DNA of 64,000 bases from Bacteroidales bacterium (GTDB lineage: Bacteria > Bacteroidota > Bacteroidia > Bacteroidales > F082), in assembly GCA_018400955.1 (NCBI GenBank), contig JAGYLH010000006.1:1-64000 (forward strand), read 5' to 3'. Shown piece by piece: positions 37,263 to 53,333 of the stretch; the stretch's first letter is position 1; each line of letters begins with the position of its first letter. A model generated the notes under the pieces. The model had not been told where the DNA came from. It made no database searches and saw only the letters and a program-made list of their open reading frames with translations. Both the position numbers and the translations under genes were made by a program.

Positions 37263-38466
37263 AATTCAATTCCACATTAGTAGGATTGAGAGTCGACCAA
37301 CTAACGCGAATATGCGAAACTTCTCAACGCAATTCCACATTGGTGCGATTGAGCTACTATATGAGCAACGGCAGACGTTCTGGATACAGTTTCAATTCAC
37401 ATTGGTACGATTGAGAGTCAACTACCAATCTTGTGTATTTCGTCACAGTGCGTGTTTGAGTTTCGGTTCCACATTGGTACGATTGAGAGATGTAACGAAA
37501 ATGCATAAGGTTAATAAAGAAAGTTTCAATTCCCATTAGTACGTTGAGTTTTCTTGATCTCCAAAAAATAGTGAACAACTAGATAGTTTCAATTCCACGA
37601 TAGATTTTGATTGAGGAGGCCCTTCGATTTAGTTAACAACATCGATTGTTTTGTTTCAATTCCACATTGGTACGATTGAAATTATGTTTCGCCGCTATGT
37701 AAACGATTCGATGCCGAGTTTCAATTCCACATTGGTACGATTGAAAATAATCGATCAGCGGCAATTGCAAGCTGGTTTCAATTTCCACATTGGTACGATT
37801 GAGGGTACATTTTTTTTTTGAACGGTTCCTTCGCAAACTTCGGTGTTTCAATTCCGGCATTGGTACGATTGGAAGGGTGTATAGTTGCTAGCCGCTCTAT
37901 TGAATTGTCGTGTTTCAATTCCACATTGTTTGAATTAGGAGTGATCAGCGTAGTGCGCGCTTATCAGCCGCTCAGCGTTTCAATTCCACATTAGTACGAT
38001 TGAGGAGTAGTGTAATGCGGATTTCTTTCCTGCTTTTACCATGTTTCAATTCCACATTGGTACGATTGAGAGGAGCAATGGCGATGCTATTGTGTGGATT
38101 GAAAGCATGTTTCAATTCCACATTGGTACGATTGAGAGAAAAAGGTTGTGGCCGTTGTTCCTTCTGATCCGGTGTTTCAATTCCACATTGGTACGATTGA
38201 AAAGGAGGGTGCCAGGCGAAGTGTCAAAAACCGGGTTATCAATGTTTCAATTCCACATTGGTACGATTGAGAGACAGCAAATCAGTAACAAGTGGGAGTA
38301 TTCAGTTTTCAATTCCACATTGGTACGATTGAGAGATGTGTTTCCCTTATCATATATCCAGTTGTGTTAAGTGTTTCAATTCCACATTGGTACGATTGAG
38401 AGTCTAGTTGCGAACCTCAACCTACGTTGTGCCGCTGGTTTCAATTCCACATTGGTACGATTGGAA
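37263..38466 (-). CRISPR. CRISPR array, distal block (19 repeats)
   Basis: I count 19 copies of a 30-bp repeat, plus-strand halves GTTTCAATTCCACATT and GGTACGATTGAGAG, with spacers of about 30-43 bp. On the minus strand the repeat ends ATTGAAAC, the classic 8-nt 5' handle of type I/III crRNAs, so transcription is right to left and this is the old end. Repeats at 37263, 37328, 37523, 37586, 37844 and 37912 are markedly degenerate, as expected for a trailer end. The last repeat of the block (38438-38466) meets the IS66-derived sequence. A mutated half-repeat may exist near 38508 (ATTCCACGCCACATTC). Confidence 0.95.
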
Positions 38467-38549
38467 GGAGAATGATTGCGGATGGTCTGGTATGAACCAA
38501 GAGTATGATATTCCACGCCACATTCAATCATAAAGATTATAATATATAT

Positions 38550-40090
38550 AAGACGCGTTTCAGTTGAAAGACTGTTCGTTTCTGTTTTCTGTAGTTAGGC
38601 TCATCCCTCCTATCCTAAGCATAGATTTGAGCCCCTTTGAATGACCGGAAGCAGTTTGAGATTTTCTGTTTGACTTTTACAGGCCTGATATCCCTTTCTG
38701 CAAGGTTGTTTGTGAATGGGACTTCTTCGTTAAAAGCAAAGGCAAGCACTGCATCTTGTTCTCTGATCAGGCGCTCGACCAGGTTTCTGGCTTTTGTCCT
38801 TTTCATCCGCCCCCGTTTTCCGGGGGTTTTTATGGGCGGGGGTTCAGCCTTTAGACCGAATTGGCATATACGCTTGTACCTTGATATTATTTTTTGCCGT
38901 TGCACTGCCCTTTGCTGAAAGGGCATTTCATACATGCATTAAAAACGTTTAAACGTTTTGGCTATTTGCTTTGGCCTGTTCTATTCGGCTTGCAGTTCCT
39001 GGAGTATATGGGGGCTACCAGAATGTTTGGTGCTGACAAATTTCAAATAACTGCCCCAGCAATCATGGGGACAAGCCATCCTGTGAAGTTGTTTTATGAT
39101 TGATTTGTCGCTTGTAGTGCTTGCCTCCTCTTTTGTCATAAAAAGATAGGTGTATAGGTTTGTGGGAAGCAGTATGGAGCCACCGCAAAAGGCTGGCTAA
39201 CCCGCAAGCCTGTTTCGTCAACATGTACAACATTGTTTTGAAGTACTTTTGATTTGATTATTTGTTCACTTTCATCGAATTATTATAAGCGCTGCAAGGA
39301 TGCTGAATAAACCGATGACTCGTTTTATGGGGCAAGAGAACAAATCGCCAAACAATTGTTGTACTTTCTTGAAAGGCGGTTGTATTGTACGTTCAACAAC
39401 ACAGCCAGTGCCTTTACATTATTGCCGTATTGAACAGGGGGAATTTACGCCCACAGTAAAGCCTTTATGAAATTACAATCCGCAGTCGGGACAGGTGCCT
39501 TTGTATATCAGGTATTCGGTGACTTCTAGTTTGGGTTGTGGCAATTCGAATAACTGCCGCTTTCTGACAACTCCATTTCCTGCTCACTAAAGGAATGCCC
39601 GCATGTACAATTGGCAAACACCTTCTTTATTTGATCTAGTTTTGTGATTGGCTGGCAATATTGCCACTATGGCCAATTTATCATATGCTTTCGCTTTGGC
39701 CTGCTTGGGAAACGCCGGTTTTTCTTAGTATAGCCATCACTCGAAGGCGGTTTGCTGCTGTTTTGCTATTGCTCTCGACAGCCTGGCTTTCAGTTACTGT
39801 TTTCAGCCTTGAGAGTTGCACAATTCGTTTTCCGCCTGATCGAGGCGCAATGTGAGCTCATCAATGCGTTTTTAGTAATGCCGATATGGTGGTCTTCGTA
39901 CAAATCTATAGTTTTTGGCAAAGGTATGTGACCACATCTTGAGATGTCAAATATTTACCCATATTGTTGCAGCACAACACCAAAATGTTGATATCCATGA
40001 TTTTACAAAACAACCTTCCCGAGAATAGCATATTTGACGAATAAAAACTTACAGCAGCAAATAAGCAAAATCTCAGGGGCTTAGAATCTT
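38550..40090 (-). pseudogene. IS66 transposase, heavily frameshifted
   Basis: The C-terminal piece is unmistakable: RNLVERLIREQDAVLAFAF, then VPFTNNLAERDIRPVKVKQK and NCFRSFKGAQIYA, the DDE-catalytic region ending with its conserved Glu. Upstream pieces in other frames follow IS66 order: an N-terminal coiled-coil segment (IDELTLRLDQAENEL), the KAKAYDKLAI and FELPQPKLEV region, a CPDCG zinc-binding motif, PFKKVQQLFGDLF, and VDETG-like sequence (broken). At least ten frame changes mean it cannot encode an active enzyme as written. Confidence 0.85.
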
Positions 40091-40102
40091 TAAAACAAGA
40101 AG

Positions 40103-40135
40103 TTGTCAACAAGCATCACGAAAAATTGTTGACAA
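40103..40135. repeat. Perfect 10-bp inverted repeat near the right edge of the IS66 remnant
   Basis: TTGTCAACAA (40103-40112) and TTGTTGACAA (40126-40135) flank a 13-base loop. It lies just before the transposase N-terminal region and about 45 bp from the next CRISPR repeat. It could be part of the element's end or a regulatory hairpin. Confidence 0.5.
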
Positions 40136-40178
40136 GGGCATAGTTTTGCATGGGAGCAGCTAAATAATTACGAACCAG

Positions 40179-43161
40179 GTTTCAATTCCACATTGGTACG
40201 ATTGAGAGAATTTAGCGGATAACACTGCATCATCCATCTGCTTCGTTTCAATTCCACATTGGTACGATTGAGAGATCTGCTCATTATTCGTCGTTTGGAG
40301 CAATGAATATGTTTCAATTCCACATTGGTACGATTGAGTTACGCATGAGTTTTCACCTGGTCATCAATGTTGTTTCAATTCCACATTGGTACGATTGAGA
40401 AGATTCATTAACTTCGTTGCTTCCATATGATATGATTTCAATTCCACATTGGTACGATTGAGAGAAGAAGTGAAGGCGCAACCGCAAGCATGCGAACTGG
40501 AGTTTCAATTCCACATTGGTACGATTGAGAGCCACTCAAACAACGAATGTAAGCTGTTATTAAATCGTTGTTTCAGATTCCATTGGTACGATTGAGCGGT
40601 TCCAACAACCCAACAAGCGACTAAATATTGAGTTTCAATTTCACATTGGTACGATTGAGAGTCCTATATAGGAGGCGATTATACATCTGCTCAAGCAAGT
40701 TTCAATTCCCACATTGGTACGATTGAGGATAATCGTTACCGAAAAGAAATTCTTTGCTAACAAGTTTCAATTCCATTAGGTACGATTGAGAGTAGAGCGT
40801 TAATTACTAAAAATGATTGCACCCCGAAGTTTCAATTCCCACATTTAATTACGATTGAGAGGTAATGTTATACCGAATGTGATATTATAGCGATGTTTGC
40901 AATTCCACATTGGTACGATTGAGGACAGGCTATCGGCTTAAAAAAAACGGCATCGAATCCTTGGTTTCAATTCCACATTGGTACGATTGAGAGCTAACCA
41001 AGTTGTATCTTTAAAGATATTCAATACCGTTTCAATTCCACATTGGTACGATTGAGAGTTTGTAACAATTCCCGTGCAAATTCTTAAAACTCTGTTTGTT
41101 TCAATTCACATTGGTACGATTGAAGGCGTCTTCTGAGTTATCTTTGCGATTCTTTATAGCATGTTTTCAATTCCACATTGGGTACACGATTGAGAGTTGC
41201 CTATGCCGGGGGTGTTGGGGTCGGACCTTGTACGTTTCAATTCCACATTGGTACGATTGAAATTTCAACAAGTATTGCATATGAATATTGTTTTTCAGTT
41301 TCAATTCCCATTGGTACGATTGAGAGTAATTTCCACCATGCCAACTTCCACCTTTTTCATCTTTAGTTTCAATTCCACATTGGTACGATTGAGAGACGGG
41401 TTCGAAAGGGTTTATAATTACCTTTTCTTTGTTTCAATTCCACCTTGGTACGATTGAGAGTTTCAGGGATTGGCGGTTTTGATTTAGCCGCCCAAGTTTC
41501 AATTCCACATTGGTACGATTGAGAGCTATCTGCGGGGCTGTAAAATAGTGAATCCTTTTTTGGTTTCAATTCCACATTGGTACGATTGAGGCTTTGTAAA
41601 ATACCGTCTTCGTTTCTTTTTTATGTTTCAATTCTTTGTTGGTACGATTGAAGGATGATGTCAAGTATTCTTTCTTGGTGATTTGCATGTTCAATTCCAC
41701 ATTAATTTTGATTGAGAGTCATTCAAGTTAATAGAGTAATTTAACCAATAAGTAGATTCAATTCCACATTGAGTACGATTGAGGAGTATTAAATTAATAA
41801 CAGGTTCCTTTTTTTGTTTCACGTTCAATTCCACATTGGTGCGATTGAGAGTTAGCAAACAATCAATTTATAGTGCAAACTAACAAGTTTCAATTCCACA
41901 TTTAATTTTGATTGAGAGAAATACTTTAAAATGATTCATGTTAATTATTTTGTGTTTCCAATTCACATTAGTACGATTGAGCAAAACAGCAAACAATAAT
42001 GACCTTAATTTCTCGTTCCAATTCCACATTGGTACATTGAGAGGCTACCTTTAAAAGAACGCACAGTCATTTCTTCTGTTTCAATTCCACATTGGTACGA
42101 TTGAGAGAATATGTAATGATGAATAATAAATATACCTGACAATAGTTTCAATTCCCATTGGTACGGTTGAGAGTTGTCGTTAGGTTGCATTACACCAACT
42201 GACTTTGTGGTTTCAATTCCACATTGGTACGATTGAGTTTTGAATTTCCTTGCCATAGCTTTAAATATTTGTGTTTCAAATTCCACATTGGTACGATTGA
42301 GAAGGGCTTTTGCTGTTAGCTTTTTCTTTTCCTTTTCAAGTTTCAATTCCACATTGGCACGATTGAGAGTGTTCTGTTTTGGTATGCAAAAATCCTTGTA
42401 CAGTTTCAATTCCACATTGGTACGATTGAGAGAGTAGGTTTGTTCGGATACAGGATCCAACCAACACATGTTTCAATTCCACATTGGTACGATTGAGAGT
42501 TGTTGCCTCTTGTTTTATATTACTTACATTTTGTGTTTCAATTTCACATTGGTACGATTGAGAGCCGGGAATAAGTTTAAGAAATTAGTAGTACATTTTG
42601 AGTTCAGTTTCCACATTAGTACGATTGAGGATTGCACAGTTCCTTACCGCTGTCATAAGTTCATTCTGTTTCAATTCCACATTGGTACGATTGAGAGGAA
42701 GGAAGATGTAAATTTAAGGCTATCGGTCAGAAGTTTCAATTCCACATTGGTACGATTGAGAGCGCAAAAAGAGAATTTGACCTATTAAATTAATAACGTT
42801 TCAATTCCACATTAATTTACGATTGAGGTGTATTCTTGAAGGATTTTAGCCACACCGTTAAGCTTTGTTTCAATTCCACATTGGTACGATTGAAGTACAA
42901 CACTAAAGCATCTTGCCGCGTGTGTTCCTGCGTTTCAATTCCACATTGGTACGATTGAGGAAGTATAACTGCATGAACAAAATAGACTGTCTTTAAAATA
43001 TTTCCAATTCACATTGGTACGATTGAGAGCTATTAAATTAATAACAGGTTCCTTTTTTGTTTCACGTTTCAATTCCACATTGGTACGATTGAGAGTATTG
43101 TGCAATATGATATTTTCAAGATTATGTTAAGAGGTTTCAATTCCACATTGGTACGATTGAG
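40179..43161 (-). CRISPR. CRISPR array, leader-proximal block (46 repeats)
   Basis: I count 46 copies of the same 30-bp repeat with spacers of about 33-40 bp. The handle orientation (ATTGAAAC on the minus strand) puts the newest spacers at the right end, beside the cas genes. Across both blocks about 30 of 65 repeats keep an exact core; many others differ by one inserted or missing base. Four repeats (40829, 41689, 41887, 42798) share the same alternative centre, with TTAATT or TTTAATT in place of TTGGT. The spacers at 41787-41822 and 43030-43065 are the same apart from homopolymer length, and that at 42763-42797 overlaps them by 16 nt. Confidence 0.97.
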
Positions 43162-43570
43162 CATAAATTGATGCCTTCAATGGAGATATGAAGTATGTTG
43201 TACTTCAGTGCACAACCCACATTGTGGGCTGGGTGCTAAGACATAACCTATAATGGCTTTTTGCAAAGAAAATGGCCAGGAAATAATTGGTAAAATATTG
43301 AGAGGAAAGCAACGGGTTGCCACTAACAGCAATGGCAAAAGAAGAGCAATACGTCGTGAACAGTTTGTTTATAAGGTGAATAAGATAAGCCAGACAATGG
43401 AGTGCCCGGGCTGCCTAGTAAACCTGTTGCTTTAATTGATTTTCAAATCAAAAGCCATTATCAATTCTATCAGCTTTGTTCTGCTTTGTCTGGCGAGGCA
43501 TCGGCGCTTTCTTTTTGTAAGTATATAAGCAGCGGCAGGACGTTACAAATGTATCAACACCAACAGTTCC
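43162..43570 (-). promoter_or_regulatory. CRISPR leader region between cas7 and the first repeat
   Basis: With the array read right to left, this 400-bp gap is the leader. It contains a perfect 13-bp palindrome, CCCACATTGTGGG (43218-43230), whose centre resembles the repeat core CCACATTGG. No gene is convincing: a 60-codon plus-strand frame at 43253-43435 runs against the array and resembles no family. I found no clear -7 element. Confidence 0.5.
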
Positions 43571-44467
43571 TCACTCAATAATCGGTATTGCTTTGTTTTC
43601 TTCTTCGCCGCTTAGTTTTGCGCGTATGCTGCCGGCAATTTTATTCGCGTTTTCACTAATACAGAAACAGCCCAAAGTTTCATTAAGCTGAAAGTGCGGG
43701 ATGGGTCGGATGTTATGAGCTGAGTATGTAATTGCGTTATTAGCGCAGGGTCTTTCTCTCTTTCCTTGGCTTTGAAGTAGCAAACATTTACTTAAAAACA
43801 TTTTCTGATTCCCACCATCCCTTATCACGAAGCAGTTTTCTGTTTCTTCCAGTTATTTCAGGCTCAAATTATTAGTGTAACGCAGAATAAACGTCGCAAA
43901 TCAATCATACATGTCTTGAATAAACAAACCAGTTTGCACGTCGTTGGTCAGGTATCCATTTTCGGCTGATACTACGGTCTTTACCAGCAAGAAGCTCAGC
44001 AATCTGTTCTTCAGTAAATTATTTCCTTGCTCATCTCTTACTATTACCAGATTATTTGACCTGTCGCTTCTGTCAAAAGATGCGTTTCCTTGTGTTGAAG
44101 GCAAAGGTGCAAACCGCGCGGATATTGATAGTGGACTGCGACGTTTTATGGTTCTTTCAGCACCGCCTTTAGCAGCCTTCATCCAACCGCCAAAAAGCTG
44201 ATCAGCATAAGCCGGATTGCAATTAGCGAAAACTTCACCTTCACCCAGTTCGCCTTTTTTGTTCACATCAAAAACAAAGGTGGTTGGGGCTGGCACCTCG
44301 TTTAATACTGATGTTAAGCGATCAATCAATGACCGTTTTACCTGCTGACCACTTGAATAAGGGACATACTTGTTAAATTGCGGGTCATAATATCTTTTTT
44401 GACCGTCTTCAACAGCAAAAACTGTATGTTCTGCTCTTTTTAATGTTCTAACATAAATTGTATTCAT
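43571..44467 (-). pseudogene. cas7: cas7 (DevR/Csa2-like backbone subunit), frameshifted
   Basis: The start is MNTIYVRTLKRAEHTVFAVE (ATG at 44467, 19 bp after cas8), with the typical SSGQQVKRSLIDRL motif, then FANCNPAYADQLFGGW and a NASFDRSDRSNN segment. The frame breaks near 44100, 44020 and 43910, but pieces downstream still fit Cas7: ENGYLTNDVQTGLFIQDMY, FVIRDGGNQKMF, NANKIAGSIRAKLS and the end KAIPIIE with TGA at 43571. Cas7 forms the crRNA-binding filament of Cascade, several copies per complex. If the breaks are real, interference is lost; if they are sequencing errors, the system may be intact. Confidence 0.85.
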
Positions 44468-44486
44468 TTTACTAAAATTTAATTGG

Positions 44487-45890
44487 TTATGAAATTCTTG
44501 TTTGGTAGGCATAATCGAACTTTAAAAGCACCACGAAATACCCGAAATCTTCGTTGGTCATTTCATGAATTCGATCCCGTAAATCTTTGAAATCGGACAA
44601 CCTTTGTTCTTCAACTTCCGAAATTATTTCAGTTAATGCTTCCAAAAACCCTTTTTTTGTTTTGGATGCAAAAAGTTGATTCTCTACAATATTTGCACGC
44701 TTTTTTGAGCCTTTTTTATCGGCTGCTCTATACTCGTATATTGCTTTGGCAATTTCCTGAGTATAATCGGATATCTGTTCTTTGTTTTTTGTAATCATAG
44801 CTAATAACCAGGTTTTATAAATTCTAAATGGAATAATTTTATTTTCGTAATCTTTCTTTTCGGCTTCCTGCACAATAGTTGCATACTCAACATCTGATTG
44901 TCCATTTTTGCGAGCAATTATTGATTTGCTCAGGTTGGGCATTTTATCTTTATCAAAATACTTTCGCAATCCTTCTGGCTCTAATGCTTGTATGCCTATT
45001 GCGCCCAATTCGCATGCGCGTTTAAGGTGTATGCCGTACATTGATTCATAATAGCTTGCGTCTTTTATTGCTACACTATCACCGAAGAGTATTCTATAAA
45101 AACCAATCAGTTTTTGAGCATGTTGAAATTTAAAAGGAAAGAAGCCTAAAGTCTTGTTTGTTTGACCAAAACTAAAGACATAGCCTGTAAATGAATTTTC
45201 AGGAAATTGCTTGGATAGATTGAAAAAAAGCTTGCTCCATTTAACTGTTTCAATTACAGTTTCAGCATTACTTAGTTTAAAAAAACCATGTCGGTCGAGT
45301 GAAGCATAATCAAAAAACTGACGAAATTCTTTACTGAATGAATAACTCAACCACTGCCCATTCCAACTTGTGATCTTATTTCCTGCCAATCTGTCTAAGG
45401 TAGGATTATTTAAGAATTGACGATATACTTTCCAGCCTTCATAAGTTTTCAGTAAAATATCGGGCTTATCAAATAGAATTGCATAGCCACCAGAAACACC
45501 AATACTCAATCCACTTCCAATCCAGGAATAGTAAATATCTTCATTGCTATGGTTTATCATCAGGTCAGTTACCAATCCTGAGGTTGTAGCAAATTCTTTT
45601 GACTCTGATGCAGGAAAGCCAATGGCGATACTTGCGTCAATTTCACCGGTGGCTATTTTCTCATGAAGGTTATCTAATTTCTCAATTCTTTCTTGGTTAT
45701 TCAACAAATGTGGCTTCTGTCCCTTTTTCATTTGCACAAATGGAGAATTCGTAGGCCATTGCAAATATTTTGGATGATTAAAAAACAGCTCAAAATATTC
45801 CTGCTCAAAGAACTCTTTGGCCGTCAGCTCTTTTTCATATTTTTGATTGTAAGCGCGGAGAAATGTTCTCCCAATATTTACTGTTATCAT
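44487..45890 (-). CDS. cas8: Type I Cas8 large subunit (Cas8b/Csx8-like)
   Basis: This 467-residue intact protein opens MITVNIGRTFLRAYNQKY with KELTAKEFFEQEYFELFF, and includes FQHAQKLIGFYRILFGDS and a helical C-terminal bundle (EIISEVEEQRLSDFKDLRDRI). Size, position between cas3 and cas7 and overall character fit the divergent large subunits of type I-B-like systems in Bacteroidota, which recognise the PAM and recruit Cas3. The exact subfamily is uncertain: it does not start like Cst1. It is A+T-rich compared with the proximal genes of the locus. It begins 12 bp after the cas3 stop. Confidence 0.8.
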   Translation of the reverse strand: MITVNIGRTFLRAYNQKYEKELTAKEFFEQEYFELFFNHPKYLQWPTNSPFVQMKKGQKPHLLNNQERIEKLDNLHEKIATGEIDASIAIGFPASESKEFATTSGLVTDLMINHSNEDIYYSWIGSGLSIGVSGGYAILFDKPDILLKTYEGWKVYRQFLNNPTLDRLAGNKITSWNGQWLSYSFSKEFRQFFDYASLDRHGFFKLSNAETVIETVKWSKLFFNLSKQFPENSFTGYVFSFGQTNKTLGFFPFKFQHAQKLIGFYRILFGDSVAIKDASYYESMYGIHLKRACELGAIGIQALEPEGLRKYFDKDKMPNLSKSIIARKNGQSDVEYATIVQEAEKKDYENKIIPFRIYKTWLLAMITKNKEQISDYTQEIAKAIYEYRAADKKGSKKRANIVENQLFASKTKKGFLEALTEIISEVEEQRLSDFKDLRDRIHEMTNEDFGYFVVLLKFDYAYQTRIS

Positions 45891-45902: not shown

Positions 45903-48059
45903 TTATAATAGTTCATAACTTGATTTTGCTTTTTCGATATCAAAACCATAATCTGAATTGTACGAATGCTCCGGAACTATATATGGCTTATTTCCATATT
46001 CTGATTGCGCGAACTTTTTTACTGACCAGTACCTGGCCGGGATTTCCATCATCATACGCTCCTCGAAAGTGGCATTTTCATAGTTTTCGACATAATCATC
46101 TGTTATGCAACTTACGCTGTCGATTTCGAGCAATTCCAGTAAATATGATTTTGGACGATGCGTCAGAAAGTCGATAACCATTGAACCGTCTTTTTTAAAA
46201 ATGGAATGTGTTTCAATGTCCATTACATCAACTTCAGGGAAAACAGCATCAATTTTCTCCTGCAAGTCTTTTTCATTTAATACATCATCATTGGGTAAAA
46301 TATTGAAACTGGCCTTCAATATATCCAAATCATATGGCAATGCCACTTTTTTGTCGTCCGGTGGTGGAATAATATAAATGGGCTTGTATTTGCCTATTGT
46401 TTCATTCGTCCGTTTACGATTAACACGCCCAAATCGCTGAATCATTGAATCCAATGGTGCTGTTTCGGTTATCATGAGATCGAAACTAATATCCAGGCTC
46501 ACTTCTACTACTTGTGTTGATACAACCAGACATGCATTTTCAGAAGTGTTAAAAGCTCCTGTTGGGTTTCCAAGTTTATCCAATCCAATAAGTTGAATTT
46601 CTTTCTCATTCCTATCCCCACGTTTGAAACGGCTATGAAGCAACAAGCTTGGCAGGTCAGGAAATTTATTTTTATAGAATTCAAATCGTTCCTGAGCTGA
46701 TTTTACCCGGTTACAAACGATAAGTATTTTTTGATCAGCACGAATTGCTTCTTCGATAACATTTTCAGCATTTTCCCAGTTAACTAATTTATGTATGGTA
46801 TGCCTGTTGAATGTTTCCAATATCGATTTTGGTAAACTTACCTCATACACATTTTTCTTGCCGAGAATTTGGACAATTCTGTTATATAAATCTGTTGGCA
46901 TTGTAGCAGTTCCAATGTGTAAGTTGCAGCCCAACCGATTGAGAACCTCAACCATTTTAATCACAATTGCTCGTGATATTTCGGTGTAGGTATGAATTTC
47001 ATCAAGAATTACATCGTTGCCTTTCAAATCAAGAATCGTAGATTCAAAAGCACGGGTTCCAAATAATATACCGGCAATTTGATGTGGTGTCAATATTTTG
47101 ATGGAGGAACCAATCAACCCTTGTAACATTTGTTCCTCAATATCTTTTCCTCTGGTTGCGATACTTGAGGCAGAATGTAAAATTCGTATGTCAAGATTCT
47201 GGTTTGTATCCATCAAATCATTTGATACACGTTTATACATAGCATTAATTGAAGCTTGAAACGGGAGCGTGTAAAACACTCGTTTTTTGCAACGGCGGAA
47301 TAAAAAATCAGTTTTTCCTGCGCCGGTGCTCGCAACAACAAGCGTATGTTTTTTCTCAGAATCAGCATTCATCAGCGAAAGTGGATACAGCTCATGTTGC
47401 CGGTTGAAAAAACTTAGATCAGCTACTTTGAAGGCTTTATTTAGCTGATTAGCTGTTTCTTCAATCATCGCAGAAGCAAAATGATCGGCTGCCATCATTA
47501 ACCCTTTCCACTCAGAGTATCCTTGCCTTATGATATTATTCTGAGCATAATTTACAGCTATATAGTAATTTGCCTCAGCTTCTTGTAAAGATATTTCATG
47601 AACTGTTATCCCAAATTCCTCAAGAATTGTCAGTGCATCTTTTGACCAATAATCCCAATCGGTATTATGAATTGCAAACACATCATCTATATTTTCCTCC
47701 AAATCCAGAAGGCCTTTTCTTCTCGAATCATTCTCAACAGATTTATGATGTGCTACCACCATTTCAATCAATTGTGGATGAATTTCAAAATCAAATAGAG
47801 ATAAAAAAAACAGAGAGGCCAATTCATGCCTGAACGTTTTATCGCTTTCTTTCCTTCTGTATGCTGGATTCAAACGTTGTTGAAAAACTGGGCTGGCCTT
47901 TCCAATATCGTGCAAAATCGCACCAAGCCTGGCGATTTTCCTATCAAAACCCAATGAATCTGCTACTTTTTCAGCAGCCATTACTGCATGCTGTAAATGG
48001 GTGTGCAAGGGTGTAAAATCAGGCTTGCCTTTTGCTTTTATATGTTCACAAACTACCAT
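45903..48059 (-). CDS. cas3: Cas3 HD nuclease-helicase
   Basis: This 718-residue protein has an N-terminal HD nuclease domain (HTHLQHAVMAAEK, GAILHDIGKASPVFQQRL, and HELASLFFLS, VVAHHKSV) followed by a superfamily 2 helicase: Walker A ASTGAGKTDF, DEIH box in VILDEIHTYTE, motif III IGTATMPTDL, motif VI QRFGRVNRKR. It unwinds and degrades target DNA after Cascade binding. The ATG abuts the cas5 stop codon with no gap, so translation is probably coupled. No frameshift is seen. Confidence 0.95.
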   Translation of the reverse strand: MVVCEHIKAKGKPDFTPLHTHLQHAVMAAEKVADSLGFDRKIARLGAILHDIGKASPVFQQRLNPAYRRKESDKTFRHELASLFFLSLFDFEIHPQLIEMVVAHHKSVENDSRRKGLLDLEENIDDVFAIHNTDWDYWSKDALTILEEFGITVHEISLQEAEANYYIAVNYAQNNIIRQGYSEWKGLMMAADHFASAMIEETANQLNKAFKVADLSFFNRQHELYPLSLMNADSEKKHTLVVASTGAGKTDFLFRRCKKRVFYTLPFQASINAMYKRVSNDLMDTNQNLDIRILHSASSIATRGKDIEEQMLQGLIGSSIKILTPHQIAGILFGTRAFESTILDLKGNDVILDEIHTYTEISRAIVIKMVEVLNRLGCNLHIGTATMPTDLYNRIVQILGKKNVYEVSLPKSILETFNRHTIHKLVNWENAENVIEEAIRADQKILIVCNRVKSAQERFEFYKNKFPDLPSLLLHSRFKRGDRNEKEIQLIGLDKLGNPTGAFNTSENACLVVSTQVVEVSLDISFDLMITETAPLDSMIQRFGRVNRKRTNETIGKYKPIYIIPPPDDKKVALPYDLDILKASFNILPNDDVLNEKDLQEKIDAVFPEVDVMDIETHSIFKKDGSMVIDFLTHRPKSYLLELLEIDSVSCITDDYVENYENATFEERMMMEIPARYWSVKKFAQSEYGNKPYIVPEHSYNSDYGFDIEKAKSSYELL

Positions 48060-48653
48060 CTAATAAAAAGTTTTTACCGGGTTTCCAACTGTTCTTAACC
48101 AACCAAACATTGGTTGATTATTATTCATACGATTATATCCCACCAAAAACGAATGTTCATTTTCCTCGAAAACAAGTTCAAATCCACTGAACAGTTCCTC
48201 ATCCTCTTTAAATTGCAAGTCATCAACTTCCATGATTTCCGCAAAAGGATACAGAATGTCTTCATTTCGGGCCAGGCAAATATGCTGTCTAGAAGCTATT
48301 TCTGCATCCTCAATAGTTTCAAATGCAAGAAATAAGATGGGGTTTACTAAAACACCTCGTCTTAATATTGAGAAAGGTCGTGAATATTCTTTTTTTCCTC
48401 CTTGACCTTTTATGTTCCACCCTCGAGGTTGAGTTTGTTCCTGCTGTTGCGCAATTTGAGAATAAGTTAACCGATGGCCTTTAATTTTATAAATCCCCCA
48501 TTCTTTATTCAGGAGTTCGGGGAAAAGTTTCCGTTCCAATCCCCCAATAATTGAAGGCGTTAAAAATTGTTGGCTGTAAACTTCTTCATCTCTCACTGCG
48601 GTCCATGGTTTTATAAACCCGAAAGGACCTGAATATTTTATGACGTATAACAT
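48060..48653 (-). CDS. cas5: Cas5 subunit
   Basis: This 197-residue protein opens MLYVIKYSGPFGFIKPWTAV with the ferredoxin-like first strand of Cas5, followed by SQQFLTPSIIGGLERKLF, and later SRPFSILRRGVLVNP and FETIEDAEIASRQ. Cas5 caps the 5' handle of the crRNA in Cascade. In type I-B it has no endonuclease role, which belongs to Cas6. It lies directly upstream of cas3. The upstream neighbour is a RAYT transposase rather than a cas gene, with a REP palindrome in the gap. Confidence 0.85.
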   Translation of the reverse strand: MLYVIKYSGPFGFIKPWTAVRDEEVYSQQFLTPSIIGGLERKLFPELLNKEWGIYKIKGHRLTYSQIAQQQEQTQPRGWNIKGQGGKKEYSRPFSILRRGVLVNPILFLAFETIEDAEIASRQHICLARNEDILYPFAEIMEVDDLQFKEDEELFSGFELVFEENEHSFLVGYNRMNNNQPMFGWLRTVGNPVKTFY

Positions 48654-48688: not shown

Positions 48689-48721
48689 AGACCTGACAGG
48701 TTTTTGAAACCTGTCAGGTCT
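48689..48721. repeat. REP palindrome between the RAYT gene and cas5
   Basis: AGACCTGACAGGTTT (48689-48703) and AAACCTGTCAGGTCT (48707-48721) are perfect complements around a 3-base loop. The arms match the palindrome inside the RAYT gene. It is 8 bp from the RAYT stop. There is no T-run on either strand, so it is a REP unit rather than a classic terminator, though it may still protect or pause transcripts of the cas operon. Confidence 0.8.
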
Positions 48722-48729
48722 GAAAAAAA

Positions 48730-49332
48730 TTACAACTCCAACCATTGTTCAATTTCCTCCCTTTCAATTTTCTGTTCGTGAACGGCCATAAAATTTGTTT
48801 GATCTTCAAACCATCCTAATACCGCCTCGCGCTCCAGTTTTGTTGGTTTTTTTGAAATGTAAGTAAGGTATGAACTCCAGGGGTATTCCAACGGGTGGGT
48901 GCAGAATCCGTGGTGAATTGGGTTGTTATGGATATACAGCACAACCTGCCGCAGATAATCCTCGCTGTCGATGAGCTTTCGTTTAAAGGGACGTTCGAAC
49001 AGCGCGCCAGAAGTTTCGTGGTATTTGTTGTATGCCTTTGTGTATGCGTTGAATAAATTGGAAAAATATTGATACAGCGGTTTTAAACCTGACAGGTTTT
49101 GAAAACCTGTCAGGTTTAAACATTCATCGACGCTCCTTATCCTCACCAATAGATGAAAATGGTTTTTCATCAGAACCCATGCGTAGGTTATTGCCACCGC
49201 CGATATATATTTATCGTAAAGCTTTAGAAAGTATTCGTAGTTGTTGGAATCCTGAAATAGGTCACGCCCACCTACCGCATGGTTGTAGATGTGGTAAAAT
49301 TGGCTGTGTTCAAGTTGTTCAAATTGCCGCAT
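48730..49332 (-). CDS. REP-associated tyrosine transposase (RAYT, Y1 family)
   Basis: This 200-residue protein has the family layout: FYHIYNHAVGGRDLF at the start, the metal-binding HxH in LMKNHFHLLVRI, then AYTKAYNKYHETSGALFERPFKRKLI and the HNNPIHHGF segment, with the catalytic Tyr region before and around VVLYIHNNP. RAYTs bind and nick REP palindromes and are single-copy domesticated relatives of IS200/IS605 transposases. Within the reading frame, after VDECLN, the codons LTGFQNLSGLK are encoded by a perfect REP palindrome (49082-49120) that keeps the frame. The gene lies between the second cas6 and cas5 on the same strand. Confidence 0.92.
   Translation of the reverse strand: MRQFEQLEHSQFYHIYNHAVGGRDLFQDSNNYEYFLKLYDKYISAVAITYAWVLMKNHFHLLVRIRSVDECLNLTGFQNLSGLKPLYQYFSNLFNAYTKAYNKYHETSGALFERPFKRKLIDSEDYLRQVVLYIHNNPIHHGFCTHPLEYPWSSYLTYISKKPTKLEREAVLGWFEDQTNFMAVHEQKIEREEIEQWLEL
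49082..49120. repeat. REP palindrome inside the RAYT coding sequence
   Basis: Two perfectly complementary 19-bp arms (TTTAAACCTGACAGGTTTT, 49082-49100, and its complement, 49102-49120) surround one G. The arms extend the same CCTGACAGG core as the palindrome at 48689-48721. It is translated in frame as about 11-13 residues of the transposase. Confidence 0.92.
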
Positions 49333-49362: not shown

Positions 49363-50022
49363 TTATTTTATCGCTCCAAACCCAATTCCTGTAGAATTAC
49401 CAATTCCAACATTCCAAGCAAACAATATCTGCTCTGGTGTACCTTTAATTATAACAGGACAAATATTTACCTTATTACCAATTTTGTTGTAGTAGATCAC
49501 TTTGGTTCTTGGGTTGCTATAGTCCAGATCGAATTGAACAGAAACACCTGCATCATCCAAATTTACCTTTCTTAATTTGTTCTTCAAGGTTTCTGTGAGT
49601 AATGTTGAGCTTTCATCGTGTTGGTATTCATAATGCTTTTCCTTTCCTTCAATATTTCGTTTGATGAAAATAGGGCTGGCAGCGGCGAACTTATGCTTAT
49701 GCTCAAATATTGGATCTTCCTGTATGATCAATTCATTCACAATAAGCCCAAAAGCAATTTCCGGATTTTCCCTTACTCCCTGAATAATACTTTTAAGAAG
49801 TTGTTGATCATGAACACTTATAAAAAAATGAGCACCATTTTCAAAACTTAAGCCTTGTTTTAATGCTTCACATCCATTTAGCCAGGAGAAAGAATAAAGG
49901 GATAAACGGTCATCATGCAATTTGTTCTTGCCAATCCATTTGTGCAATGCCCCAGTTAAAAAGGTTTGGTAATTAAATGGAACCAATTCCTTAGATTTTG
50001 TTGTTTTCAAATGTAGTCTCAT
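49363..50022 (-). CDS. cas6: Second Cas6 endoribonuclease
   Basis: This 219-residue protein has the Cas6 layout: a first ferredoxin-like strand (MRLHLKTTKSKELVPFNYQ), HKWIG near residue 28 with a candidate catalytic His, YSFSWLNG, and the C-terminal glycine-rich loop GNSTGIGFGAIK that binds the repeat RNA. Cas6 cleaves pre-crRNA within the repeat, leaving the 8-nt handle. It is clearly different from the other Cas6 (51539-52336): only the general fold and the G-loop correspond. It has lower G+C, like the downstream cas5-cas3-cas8 genes. Confidence 0.88.
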   Translation of the reverse strand: MRLHLKTTKSKELVPFNYQTFLTGALHKWIGKNKLHDDRLSLYSFSWLNGCEALKQGLSFENGAHFFISVHDQQLLKSIIQGVRENPEIAFGLIVNELIIQEDPIFEHKHKFAAASPIFIKRNIEGKEKHYEYQHDESSTLLTETLKNKLRKVNLDDAGVSVQFDLDYSNPRTKVIYYNKIGNKVNICPVIIKGTPEQILFAWNVGIGNSTGIGFGAIK

Positions 50023-50045
50023 AATACTTCTAATTTTATTATTCC

Positions 50046-51449
50046 TTAATTCAACCCCGCCTTCCTCATCTCATCCTTCAGCGCGGGCAGGTTGGGTTTG
50101 TGGGCATACGTATTTTGTATCAGTTGTGTTGTTTTGGTTTCGTAGCCGGGTATTTGTTTGGCAAGCACCAGCCATTTGGCTATTTCGGCATAAGTGCTGC
50201 GACCCCGCTCGTTTTCGAGGGTGCCCACAACCATCTCCTTTATTTTTTCGAAACTAAAATCGGGATAAACGGTCAATAAGGGTGCAATCAGCTGATCGAA
50301 ATACCAACGGTTGTTTTCTTTTTGAACCAGTGCTTTGATGTCGGCATAGCGTTCGTCGGTTTCATATATTTTCACCAAAAAAACGGTGTCTCTTTTCAGT
50401 TCGCTGATTATTTTCGCATAGCTTGCTTCATCCAGATAGGGTTTTACTTTTTGGTAGTATTGAATGTTTTGTCGCGAAATGGTAAGTGTTGAAAACACCT
50501 TCACGAACAATTGTTCATCAAGCTGCGGCGTAACGTAGGGCTCAAGAAAAGTTGACCAGGAACCAGCTCTTGCAGAAAACAATTCGTGGGCTGTTTCTAC
50601 AAAAGCTGTTTGGTCATGCTCAAAATAGAATTGCAGCAATTCCTTGGCCACAGCATCGCTTGTGCGATACATTTGCCGGGCAGCCAGCAACCAGGCATCC
50701 TTGTTGCCCGAGGCTTTGTACAGCATCAAGGTAAGCTCGGGCAAAACCGCTTGTTCAATACCTGCCTGCGCCCTTATTTCGAGTAATTGGCCTGCATTTT
50801 CGGTTTTTTCGGCCAGGGCAAGCAATACAGGCTCAAAATGTTTGGCAAAATAGGGGTTGCCGGGGTATTGTTCGCTGCAATAGCGAAAAAACAATTCAAA
50901 GGAGCTGTTAATTTTACTGTTTGGTGGGGCACCGAGCCTGAGCTTTTTTGCCAAGGCATTGATAACCTTCTTGTGCTCCAAAACCAGGAATTCGTTCACA
51001 TCCCCGAACGATTCAAATTCATCGTGCACATCGGCATCAAGCGCTGCTTCGTAAAGCCCCGCAAGCATGGCCAATAATTCGTCAGGCCGCTGTTCGATGA
51101 TTTTGTCCATGGCACCGGAAAGGAACACCTGATAATATTCCTGAAATTCCTGCTCACTTGCTTGCTGATATTGTTCCCATTCTTCGATATAACCCGCGTG
51201 CGATGGGGTATAGCTGTCCCAGTCGGGGTTTTCGGTATCAACCGACTCGAAATGGTACCGATACAAATCATTTGTATCAGTGATTATTTCAGAAAACGCC
51301 TCAAAAGTTAATCTGTCTGGCACACAATCTTCTGCTTTAATGAAGGCTATAAATGCTTCCTTAAGGGAATCATTGTTCTTAAGGATTGCGCGCAGATAGT
51401 TAATCTTTACACTATCAGGCGTGTTTTCATATAGTTTTTCAAAATCCAT
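50046..51449 (-). CDS. Unrecognised 467-residue helical-repeat protein in the cas locus
   Basis: The sequence is almost entirely helical, acidic in the N-terminal third (PDWDSYTPSHAGYIEEWEQY, FQEYYQVFLSGAMDKI) and arranged later in pairs of helices about 35-40 residues long (KDAWLLAARQMYRTSDAVAK, AKELLQFYFEHDQTAFVETA, YAKIISELKRDTVFLVKIYE, STYAEIAKWLVLAKQI). It resembles a TPR/HEAT-like solenoid. There are no catalytic motifs, signal peptide or membrane segments. It lies 23 bp upstream of the second cas6 and 90 bp after the first, on the same strand. I know no Cas protein of this type. A Cascade-associated scaffold, a Cas6 partner, or an unrelated passenger are all possible. Confidence 0.75.
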   Translation of the reverse strand: MDFEKLYENTPDSVKINYLRAILKNNDSLKEAFIAFIKAEDCVPDRLTFEAFSEIITDTNDLYRYHFESVDTENPDWDSYTPSHAGYIEEWEQYQQASEQEFQEYYQVFLSGAMDKIIEQRPDELLAMLAGLYEAALDADVHDEFESFGDVNEFLVLEHKKVINALAKKLRLGAPPNSKINSSFELFFRYCSEQYPGNPYFAKHFEPVLLALAEKTENAGQLLEIRAQAGIEQAVLPELTLMLYKASGNKDAWLLAARQMYRTSDAVAKELLQFYFEHDQTAFVETAHELFSARAGSWSTFLEPYVTPQLDEQLFVKVFSTLTISRQNIQYYQKVKPYLDEASYAKIISELKRDTVFLVKIYETDERYADIKALVQKENNRWYFDQLIAPLLTVYPDFSFEKIKEMVVGTLENERGRSTYAEIAKWLVLAKQIPGYETKTTQLIQNTYAHKPNLPALKDEMRKAGLN

Positions 51450-51538
51450 TGCTGTGATTAGTTATTATTAAGGTGTATCGTTTGTAATTTTCTGTTGTTG
51501 TCAATTAATTGCCCAGTTTTCAAAATTTAGCATATTCA

Positions 51539-52336
51539 TTAAGTCAAGTATTTGGCACATCCCATCCCCAGACTGTTTTTTTCGCCAAAGCCCGAAAAGT
51601 AGCCTATATACAGTAGTTCGCGAGGTGCAGTTATTTCAAAATCATACATATAGCCAACAAGCTGTGTTTGCATGGGGGTGCCGGCTTTTACCACTATGCC
51701 TTTTTGTTTTACAGGTTCCTTAAAGCTGAAACGCATATCCACGGCCCCGTTCAAAGCCGTGCTGGTATTTGCTAACAGTCCCGCTTCCAAAGCAGCGGCA
51801 TATTTGCGCACCAGATTGTCAAACAAAATCCTTTCATAGTCGGCATGGCCGGGCTTGAGGTATTCGGCATACTTGCTGTTTTCGTCATAGCGGCTGACCA
51901 TGATGGGGGAATTGGCCGAAAAGCTGACGGTATTGGCAAAATCGGGGAAAGGCAATGCTTCCACATGGCGCACCATGAAATTCACCTTGCTTTGTTTGTC
52001 GCCAATGCTGAATGTCTGTTCCCTGAAAAGGCCACCGATGAAATGTTGCATGGCTTCGGGAACAAAAAAGGAAAGTTCCAATTGAGCCTGACTGCATTGC
52101 AGTTGCATACAATTGTTTGCCACCCGAAACCCCTTTGGCGGAAATCGGAACTGCGAAAAAGTGAACAGTTTGTACGACCTTGACCCGTTCACAAAACCTT
52201 TTTCGTGCAAAAAGGCAGCAAATTCGTGGTTGCCCTCATTGATGGTTTTGTAAATCCATGCCGAAACCGGATATTGGTAATTGAACGGCAACAAGTTCAT
52301 GCCCTCTGCGATGTCAAGGTGAAGTAAAAAACGCAT
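51539..52336 (-). CDS. cas6: First Cas6 endoribonuclease
   Basis: This 265-residue Cas6 has the full length and features of the family: MRFLLHLDIAEGMNLLPFNYQ, AWIYKTI near residue 28, YKLFTFSQFRFP, and the C-terminal G-rich loop GYFSGFGEKNSLGMGCAKYL that grips the repeat RNA. It processes pre-crRNA. It is the first cas gene after the WYL regulator, with a 61-bp gap that contains a palindrome. G+C is higher than in the second cas6, similar to the host genome. Confidence 0.93.
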   Translation of the reverse strand: MRFLLHLDIAEGMNLLPFNYQYPVSAWIYKTINEGNHEFAAFLHEKGFVNGSRSYKLFTFSQFRFPPKGFRVANNCMQLQCSQAQLELSFFVPEAMQHFIGGLFREQTFSIGDKQSKVNFMVRHVEALPFPDFANTVSFSANSPIMVSRYDENSKYAEYLKPGHADYERILFDNLVRKYAAALEAGLLANTSTALNGAVDMRFSFKEPVKQKGIVVKAGTPMQTQLVGYMYDFEITAPRELLYIGYFSGFGEKNSLGMGCAKYLT

Positions 52337-52397: not shown

Positions 52398-53288
52398 TTA
52401 ATATTTATTTATTTTTTCTTTGATATAATCTTTTAACTCCTGTGGTTCAATCACTTCTATCTCGTCCAGCAATCCCATCACAAAGCGGCCCACCCCTTTG
52501 AGTGAGTAAACCTCACCCGCGTAGAGGTGGTTGTATCCTTGGGTATGGATGCAGGGGGCCGCATCGGGATGCTCTTCTTCGAGCAGGTGGCGTGCCCGTT
52601 TGCTCAGGCGCAATTTCACCCCAATGGGCTGTGTGCCCGACATGCCAAACACATCCACCTTTTGCTTGCTTTGCTCCCCGGCATATTGCCAGCTTTTGCC
52701 GGTAAGGATGGTTTCGGTAATGCGTTCGGTTTTGAATTGCTTAACCTTTTGGTCCACCACATCAAAAGCCATCAGATAGCGATAGTAGTTGTAAAAGCGG
52801 ATGGGTTCCAACAAATAATCCTTGGGCTTGCTGCTGCCCATGCTGTGATAGTTTTTTAGCTGGATTTGCGTGTTGGTTTTGATGGCTTCCCGTATATGGC
52901 TGATATTTTTTGAGATGGCCTGTTTGTAAATGGTATCGGCCAGTTCGTCGAGTTCGGTGAGGGCGTAAAGCTTATCAAGCAGGCTTTTTTGCAAATGGCC
53001 CGGATGGGTGCAGGCGAATAAGGCCTCTTTGATGGTAGCGGCTTCTTCCAGGCTGAAATGTATCAGTTGTTCATGTTGCAGGGCGCGCCTTTCGGGACTT
53101 TCAATTTTAAAACGCGGGCCTGCTTTGGTAATCTCAAAACCCAGATCGCGCAACAATTGAAAATGGCGCTCAATGGTGCGCTCGCTCACTTCAAAAGAAT
53201 CCGAAACTTCTTTTTTGGTACAACCTAAGGGCGAACGCAAGCGCGAAAGTAATTGAAATATGCGGTAAAACTTACGTTGTTCGTCCAT
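52398..53288 (-). CDS. WYL-domain transcriptional regulator of the cas locus
   Basis: I choose the ATG at 53288 (MDEQRKFYRIFQLL, 296 residues) over the frame's first ATG at 53324, because it begins the usual family start and leaves a 40-bp leader after a good promoter. The N-terminus is a winged helix-turn-helix (SRLRSPLGCTKKEVSDSFEVSERTIERHFQ, read in two parts). The WYL region follows (LEPIRFYNYYRYLMAF, then the WCX end with LSKRARHLLEEEHP and GVGRFVMGLLDEIEV). WYL regulators often adjoin CRISPR-Cas genes and some bind nucleic-acid ligands. Its position at the head of the cas gene run suggests local control. Confidence 0.9.
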   Translation of the reverse strand: MDEQRKFYRIFQLLSRLRSPLGCTKKEVSDSFEVSERTIERHFQLLRDLGFEITKAGPRFKIESPERRALQHEQLIHFSLEEAATIKEALFACTHPGHLQKSLLDKLYALTELDELADTIYKQAISKNISHIREAIKTNTQIQLKNYHSMGSSKPKDYLLEPIRFYNYYRYLMAFDVVDQKVKQFKTERITETILTGKSWQYAGEQSKQKVDVFGMSGTQPIGVKLRLSKRARHLLEEEHPDAAPCIHTQGYNHLYAGEVYSLKGVGRFVMGLLDEIEVIEPQELKDYIKEKINKY

Positions 53289-53333
53289 GCCCGTTTGTTT
53301 TTTGGTTCGCTGGGGGGCGTGCATTTAGGATGC

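What the first reader, a model, noticed from the sequence alone, without database searches (positions are those of the whole stretch)
49363..52336. Two dissimilar Cas6 enzymes flank a helical-repeat protein of unknown function
The locus has only one repeat type but two Cas6 proteins (265 and 219 residues) that share little beyond the fold and G-rich loop. Between them, on the same strand with small gaps, lies a 467-residue solenoid-like protein with no recognised domain. The first cas6 and the unknown gene have host-like composition while the second cas6 and everything downstream is more A+T-rich. The arrangement could be a resident WYL-cas6-unknown module that captured a Cascade cassette, with the helical protein acting on crRNA processing or regulation. 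This is the strongest candidate here for an undescribed CRISPR-associated component.
Basis: partly seen in the sequence, partly recalled or inferred. Interest (0 to 1): 0.75.

Follow-up and report, generated by a model that had tools for sequence, protein, structure and literature searches.

The report
CRISPR-linked solenoid between two Cas6 genes
A bacterial CRISPR locus carries two different guide-RNA-cutting enzymes with an acidic, spring-shaped helper protein between them; close relatives of that protein recur beside CRISPR genes in a dozen other Bacteroidota genomes, so it looks like an undescribed but optional CRISPR accessory, although the CRISPR system here is itself decaying.

Summary
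Two Cas6 genes (265 and 219 aa, 23% identical over their alignable part) flank an intact 467-aa gene on one strand, with gaps of 89 and 23 nt. The 467-aa protein is predicted with high confidence (pLDDT 90) to be an all-helical solenoid. Profile comparison shows it is a SWIM zinc-finger-family protein without the SWIM domain (hhalign E 2e-36). It is acidic and matches no Pfam, NCBIfam, PADLOC or PHROG family. Relatives lie in or beside cas loci in 13 of 17 genomes (10 of 13 from whole-genome sampling). Most are downstream of the long Cas6; others sit by cas4/cas1.

It is unlikely to be a dedicated crRNA-processing factor. Two relatives with intact cassettes have broken copies, presence is scattered over the long-Cas6 tree, and some copies have no nearby Cas6. 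The Cas6 pair is a recurrent arrangement in this order: the short Cas6 belongs to the I-B cassette, while the long one accompanies several cassette types and keeps a Pfu-like catalytic triad. Both serve one repeat family. Here cas7 is a pseudogene, the array is degenerate and no cas1 was found.

Verdict: a real, apparently unnamed CRISPR-linked accessory family; function inferred only.

The parts
52398..53324 (-). WYL-domain transcription regulator, 308 aa
   Evidence: Pfam WYL 2.7e-05 and WCX 1.1e-05; PADLOC CRISPR-associated WYL model 1.4e-17. WYL genes lie within 3 kb of 13 of 41 long-cas6 genes.
51539..52336 (-). long Cas6 (Cas6-1, 265 aa); candidate catalytic triad Tyr29/His44/Lys56
   Evidence: TIGR01877 1.7e-23; PADLOC Cas6b 3e-65. 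Y29 and H44 invariant and K56 at least 90% in 19 homologues; they align with the catalytic positions of the Pyrococcus Cas6 chain 3pkm.
50046..51449 (-). 467-aa acidic alpha-solenoid; SWIM-less member of the SWIM zinc-finger family; CRISPR-linked accessory
   Evidence: No library family; AlphaFold2 pLDDT 90.2, all helical; hhalign to the SWIM family over the whole length, E 1.9e-36; homologues in cas loci; pI 4.84, net charge -25.
49363..50022 (-). short Cas6 (Cas6-2, 219 aa), first gene of the I-B cassette; His27/His36 invariant
   Evidence: TIGR01877 8.6e-27; PADLOC Cas6b 3.7e-96; heads cas5-cas3-cas8-cas7 in most other loci; invariant residues.
48730..49332 (-). REP-associated tyrosine transposase (RAYT) gene inside the cassette, carrying a REP-like palindrome within its coding sequence
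   Evidence: NF047646 7.2e-17 (61.6 bits, below its curated cut-off of 80); palindromes at 48690-48720 and 49086-49116, 4 matches against 0.08 expected.
48060..48653 (-). cas5 (type I-B)
   Evidence: PADLOC Cas5, CAS-I-B, 5.3e-81.
45903..48059 (-). cas3 (HD nuclease and helicase)
   Evidence: TIGR01587 2.3e-59 and TIGR01596 9.7e-19.
44487..45890 (-). cas8b
   Evidence: PADLOC Cas8b 2.4e-160.
43433..44512 (-). cas7 pseudogene: 203-aa ORF at 43901-44512, then frameshifts and stops
   Evidence: PADLOC Cas7b 2e-71 on the N-terminal part; homology to an intact 354-aa Cas7 continues to 43433 but jumps between frames and crosses stops.
37263..43161 (.). degenerate CRISPR array, 66 recognisable 30-nt repeats (17 exact), interrupted at 38466-40178 by an insertion with a transposase remnant
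   Evidence: repeats; transposase-like ORF at 38615-38935.

Best explanation
The 467-aa protein is an optional accessory protein of Bacteroidota type I CRISPR-Cas loci. It is a SWIM-less branch of the SWIM zinc-finger/alpha-solenoid family. Its likely job is to act as an acidic protein-binding scaffold that contacts basic Cas proteins and tunes an existing step (effector assembly, expression or spacer uptake), rather than to cut or process RNA. The two Cas6 proteins come from two separable modules: a long, cassette-independent Cas6 on the host-like side, and a short Cas6 that heads the I-B cassette. They serve the same repeat family and are probably partly redundant. Shown here: the genes, the predicted fold, the homology to SWIM proteins, the recurrent linkage, the acidity, the decay of the gene in two relatives with intact cassettes, and the shared repeat family. 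Inferred: protein-binding and tuning activity, Cas6 redundancy, and the target of the scaffold. In this genome the system is probably decaying.
For: Linkage: 13 of 17 genomes with a close relative have it in or next to cas genes; 10 of 13 when only whole-genome sampling is counted. In all 8 loci where it lies within 3 kb of a long cas6 it is downstream and co-directional. Three further copies are beside adaptation genes: between cas4 and cas1 in L117, near cas4 or cas4-cas1 in L043 and L044. Core clade of 11 copies (95/95 support), 9 of them linked. Fold and homology: pLDDT 90.2 solenoid, hhalign E 1.9e-36 to SWIM proteins over the whole length. Acidic in all 13 members tested (pI 4.6-5.4), with the charge concentrated in residues 51-150 of the window copy, while Cas6-1, Cas6-2 and Cas8 are basic. 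Optional: truncated with a stop in G007 and internally deleted in G001, whose cassettes read intact. Cas6 modules; shared repeat family.
Against: Four relatives are not beside cas genes (L004, L041, L046, L058), including the closest one, L004 (60% identity, though on a 3.6-kb contig). No experiment, interaction prediction or catalytic motif supports any specific activity. Fold search finds only generic solenoids, none with E <= 0.001, and such folds can bind RNA or protein. The same cas neighbourhoods hold many other variable genes, so linkage may reflect a defence hot spot.
Confidence: 0.45

Rival explanations
1. Hitch-hiking stand-alone defence gene. The solenoid protein works independently of CRISPR and sits in cas loci because these are defence hot spots that collect cargo (WYL, HIRAN, DUF1016, pRiA4b-like and SWIM genes).
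For: Four unlinked relatives (L004, L041, L046, L058). Presence is scattered on the long-Cas6 tree, at least 6 changes forced by supported branches. Intact cassettes exist without it. A SWIM relative matches a PADLOC phage-defence candidate, PDC-S62, E 4.6e-13.
Against: The position is stereotyped, downstream of and co-directional with long cas6 in 8 loci. Nine of 11 core-clade copies are linked. No copy was found in the phage, plasmid or viral collections searched.
Confidence: 0.28
2. Brake on the CRISPR machinery. The acidic N-terminal part imitates nucleic acid and occupies the RNA- or DNA-binding face of Cas6, Cas8 or Cas1, limiting self-damage.
For: All 13 members are acidic and most of the charge of the window copy (net -22) lies in residues 51-150, which also hold the longest invariant block (Y87 to F102). 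Cas6-1, Cas6-2 and Cas8 are basic. Copies by long cas6 and by cas4/cas1 would fit a common brake.
Against: Acidic solenoids are common and no fold match to a nucleic-acid mimic was found. Acidity alone is weak evidence.
Confidence: 0.12
3. Dedicated crRNA-processing partner of the long Cas6.
For: Downstream of long cas6 in 8 loci; pairwise identities of the two proteins correlate over six loci, r 0.55, 32 of 720 permutations as high.
Against: Most long-cas6 loci lack it; broken in G007 and G001, which keep an intact long cas6; copies in L043, L044 and L117 have no long cas6 within the stretch read; presence not clustered on the Cas6 tree (84 of 500 shuffles as low).
Confidence: 0.1

Closest known systems
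SWIM zinc-finger family proteins of Bacteroidota (Pfam PF04434; PADLOC candidate PDC-S62)
   Same: Homologous over the whole 467 residues to the region after the SWIM domain; same C-terminal PALKDEFRK-type motif. SWIM genes also occur at cas loci here (L005, L060, L073; [quoted passage not shown]
   Different: The N-terminal SWIM zinc finger is absent: no Pfam SWIM match and only 2 cysteines in the protein.
Type I-B CRISPR-Cas (Cas6b, Cas8b, Cas7b, Cas5b, Cas3)
   Same: The interference genes match I-B models; the order cas6-cas5-cas3-cas8-cas7 recurs in related genomes.
   Different: A second, divergent Cas6 and the solenoid gene are added upstream; cas7 broken; cas1 not found in this genome.
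Multiple Cas6 paralogues in one cell (Sulfolobus solfataricus, five Cas6; PMC4041471)
   Same: More than one Cas6 per genome with possible division of labour.
   Different: In Sulfolobus the paralogues differ in repeat specificity across two repeat families; here long-only, short-only and dual loci share one repeat family.
WYL regulators linked to CRISPR and defence islands (PMC9122601, listed)
   Same: A WYL gene precedes long cas6 here and lies near it in several relatives.
   Different: Its regulatory target at this locus is untested.

Membership tests
SWIM zinc-finger family protein | SWIM zinc finger (CxC...CxH) near the N terminus | tested here: not met
   No Pfam SWIM match in the 467-aa protein; only 2 cysteines in the whole protein.
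SWIM zinc-finger family protein | Homologous helical region after the SWIM domain | tested here: met
   hhalign 99.9%, E 1.9e-36, residues 2-467 against 102-553 of the SWIM-protein profile; a narrower SWIM profile aligns the C-terminal 171 residues only, E 3.2e-11.
Cas6 (265-aa protein) | Cas6 sequence model and Pfu-type catalytic residues | tested here: met
   TIGR01877 84 bits, over cut-off; Y29/H44/K56 align with 3pkm. That the Pfu triad is Y31/H46/K52 is from general knowledge.
Cas6 (219-aa protein) | Cas6 sequence model and conserved histidines | tested here: met
   TIGR01877 95 bits; H27 and H36 invariant in 15 homologues.
Cas6 (either) | Cuts the CRISPR repeat RNA | not testable with these tools
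   Needs an in vitro cleavage assay.
Functional type I-B system | Intact cas8b, cas7, cas5, cas3, and an adaptation module | tested here: not met
   cas7 broken; no cas1 in an 83%-complete genome.
CRISPR-associated accessory protein | Recurrent linkage to cas genes across lineages | tested here: met
   13 of 17 genomes; 10 of 13 in whole-genome sampling.
CRISPR-associated accessory protein | Effect on CRISPR function | not testable with these tools
   Needs genetics or biochemistry.

The most novel reading that the evidence does not exclude
The family is a host-encoded acidic solenoid, repeatedly recruited into type I CRISPR loci next to the long Cas6 or cas4/cas1, that directly binds Cas proteins and controls crRNA supply or spacer uptake: a new class of CRISPR regulator derived from SWIM proteins.
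Probability: 0.25. Interest if true: 0.7.

Novelty: new variant of a known kind. Interest (0 to 1): 0.48.

Why it matters
It adds an apparently unnamed, CRISPR-linked protein family with a clear fold and ancestry, and a set of genomes in which to test it. It also shows that two Cas6 lineages share one repeat family across Bacteroidota and that the long Cas6 travels separately from the Cascade cassette, which makes the question of why a cell keeps two Cas6 enzymes directly testable.

Tried and rejected
The protein search of viral contigs, phages and plasmids found no relative, so carriage by mobile elements is unsupported. Solved-structure sequence search with the helical profile found nothing. 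Fold search gave only generic solenoids with poor TM-scores, so no function was read from them. The GC step was first taken as possible evidence of recent capture, then rejected as such because it recurs in 19 of 21 loci. The idea that the two Cas6 enzymes serve different repeats was rejected, since long-only, short-only and dual loci have the same repeat type. A fixed Cas6-helical pair was rejected on the tree. My first array scan undercounted repeats and was replaced. Literature searches found no description of this protein, but the supplementary tables of the 2023 CRISPR survey could not be read, so prior listing there is possible.

Full report
What is there. On the - strand, in order, lie a WYL regulator, a long Cas6 (265 aa), a 467-aa protein, a short Cas6 (219 aa), a RAYT transposase, cas5, cas3, cas8 and a broken cas7, followed by a CRISPR array. 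The gaps around the 467-aa gene are 89 and 23 nt. The window lies on contig C192 (64,748 bases) of a 235-contig genome estimated 83% complete.

State of the locus. Cas7 homology extends over the full length of an intact relative, but the window frame stops after 203 codons and the rest jumps between frames and crosses stops. Of 66 recognisable repeats only 17 are exact, and the array is split by an insertion carrying a transposase remnant. No Cas1 was found in the genome, while the same search finds Cas1 in 9 of 14 control genomes. The cas6, helical, cas5, cas3 and cas8 frames are open. The system here is probably no longer functional, with the reservation that assembly errors could mimic frameshifts and that about 17% of the genome is missing.

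The helical protein. It matches no family in Pfam, NCBIfam, PADLOC or PHROGs and no solved structure by sequence. With 18 sequences aligned, AlphaFold2 gives an all-helical solenoid at mean pLDDT 90.2. Fold search finds only generic repeat proteins. A profile of nine members aligns from residue 2 to 467 with the part of SWIM zinc-finger proteins that follows the SWIM domain, E 1.9e-36; with a three-member SWIM profile, only the C-terminal 171 residues align, E 3.2e-11. Several of the SWIM rows in the larger profile were themselves found with the helical profile, so the smaller comparison is the more independent one. All 13 members tested are acidic (pI 4.6 to 5.4), with the charge of the window copy concentrated in residues 51-150.

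Linkage. Relatives were gathered from named genome contigs and from whole-genome searches of 41 relatives, 393 genomes of the order, 395 of the phylum and 173 of the family, with small family searches besides. Linked: the window, L005, L006, L007, G007, G001, G825, G237, G283, G279, G302, G203, G050. Not linked: L004, G246, G274, G586; L004 and G274 lie on short contigs or near contig ends. In whole-genome sampling without the window, 10 of 13 are linked; if as much as 4% of a genome lay near cas genes this would have a chance of the order of 1e-12 (my estimate, not a tool result). The core clade holds 11 copies, 9 linked; the two unlinked ones are nested inside it. Many deeper branches are unresolved, and more distant SWIM-less or SWIM-bearing relatives are mostly unlinked.

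Not a fixed Cas6 partner. Eight of 41 long-cas6 genes examined have the helical gene within 3 kb; these loci were partly chosen for having it, so this fraction is an overestimate. On the long-Cas6 tree its presence needs 7 changes against 8.2 in shuffles, 84 of 500 as low. In G007 only a truncated copy with a stop remains, and in G001 an internally deleted one, while their cas genes read intact. Copies also lie by cas4 and cas1.

Two Cas6 enzymes. TIGR01877 matches 99 of 393 genomes of the order, and pairs of Cas6 genes within 1-3 kb recur in at least eight. Between a long and a short Cas6 lie different genes: nothing, WYL, HIRAN, a pRiA4b-like gene, unknown genes or the helical gene. The short Cas6 heads a cas5-cas3-cas8-cas7 cassette in most loci and is the only Cas6 found in some genomes; the long Cas6 occurs with several other cassette kinds. 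The long Cas6 GC3 exceeds that of its cassette in 19 of 21 loci (p 6.7e-5), whereas the short Cas6 matches its cassette. Candidate catalytic residues are conserved in both. Arrays at long-only, short-only and dual loci share a repeat pattern of the form TCAATCGNACCNNNNNGGAATTGAAA with variation.

Mechanism. A nuclease role is unlikely for a protein with a plain solenoid fold and no recognised catalytic family. Acidity makes direct RNA binding less likely and protein binding more likely. The most economical reading is an optional scaffold or regulator of the Cas machinery; hitch-hiking in a defence hot spot is the main rival. Neither is proven here.

Known context. A large 2023 survey lists SWIM and WYL among genes newly associated with CRISPR adaptation modules (PMC10910872), and the 2025 classification does not mention SWIM in its main text (PMC12669027). 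I found no description of the SWIM-less family, but the library holds only openly licensed papers and supplements were not readable.

Noticed in passing
window 43433-44512 and 37263-43161: cas7 is a pseudogene and the CRISPR array is degenerate with a transposase-bearing insertion, so the CRISPR system of this genome is probably decaying.
   Followed up: yes
window 48690-48720 and 49086-49116: REP-like palindromes (AACCTGWCAGGTT pairs) beside and within the RAYT transposase gene, the inner one inside its open frame; RAYT proteins of L007 and L009 differ at the same place.
   Followed up: partly
L006:10959, L038:16187, L042:17361, L043:3152, L063:2314, L064:3003, L069:472, L070:1028, L073:17991: A cysteine-motif protein family (CTGDPMTCPYGEYCDC) with no Pfam match recurs at these cas loci, often between cas7 and cas4.
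   Followed up: partly
L008:9339, L045:654, L052:2322: Another unassigned family (LVDxxCLGVK motif, in L008 apparently fused to a pRiA4b-like domain) lies next to the helical gene or cas6.
   Followed up: no
L044:2322, L046:10809, L091:7690: A coiled-coil-like protein family adjoins the helical gene twice and a long cas6 once.
   Followed up: no
window 48730, L007, L009, L068, L075, L099, L117; IS200-like genes at L006, L009, L038, L060, L096: RAYT and IS200-like transposase genes are frequent inside cas loci of this order.
   Followed up: partly
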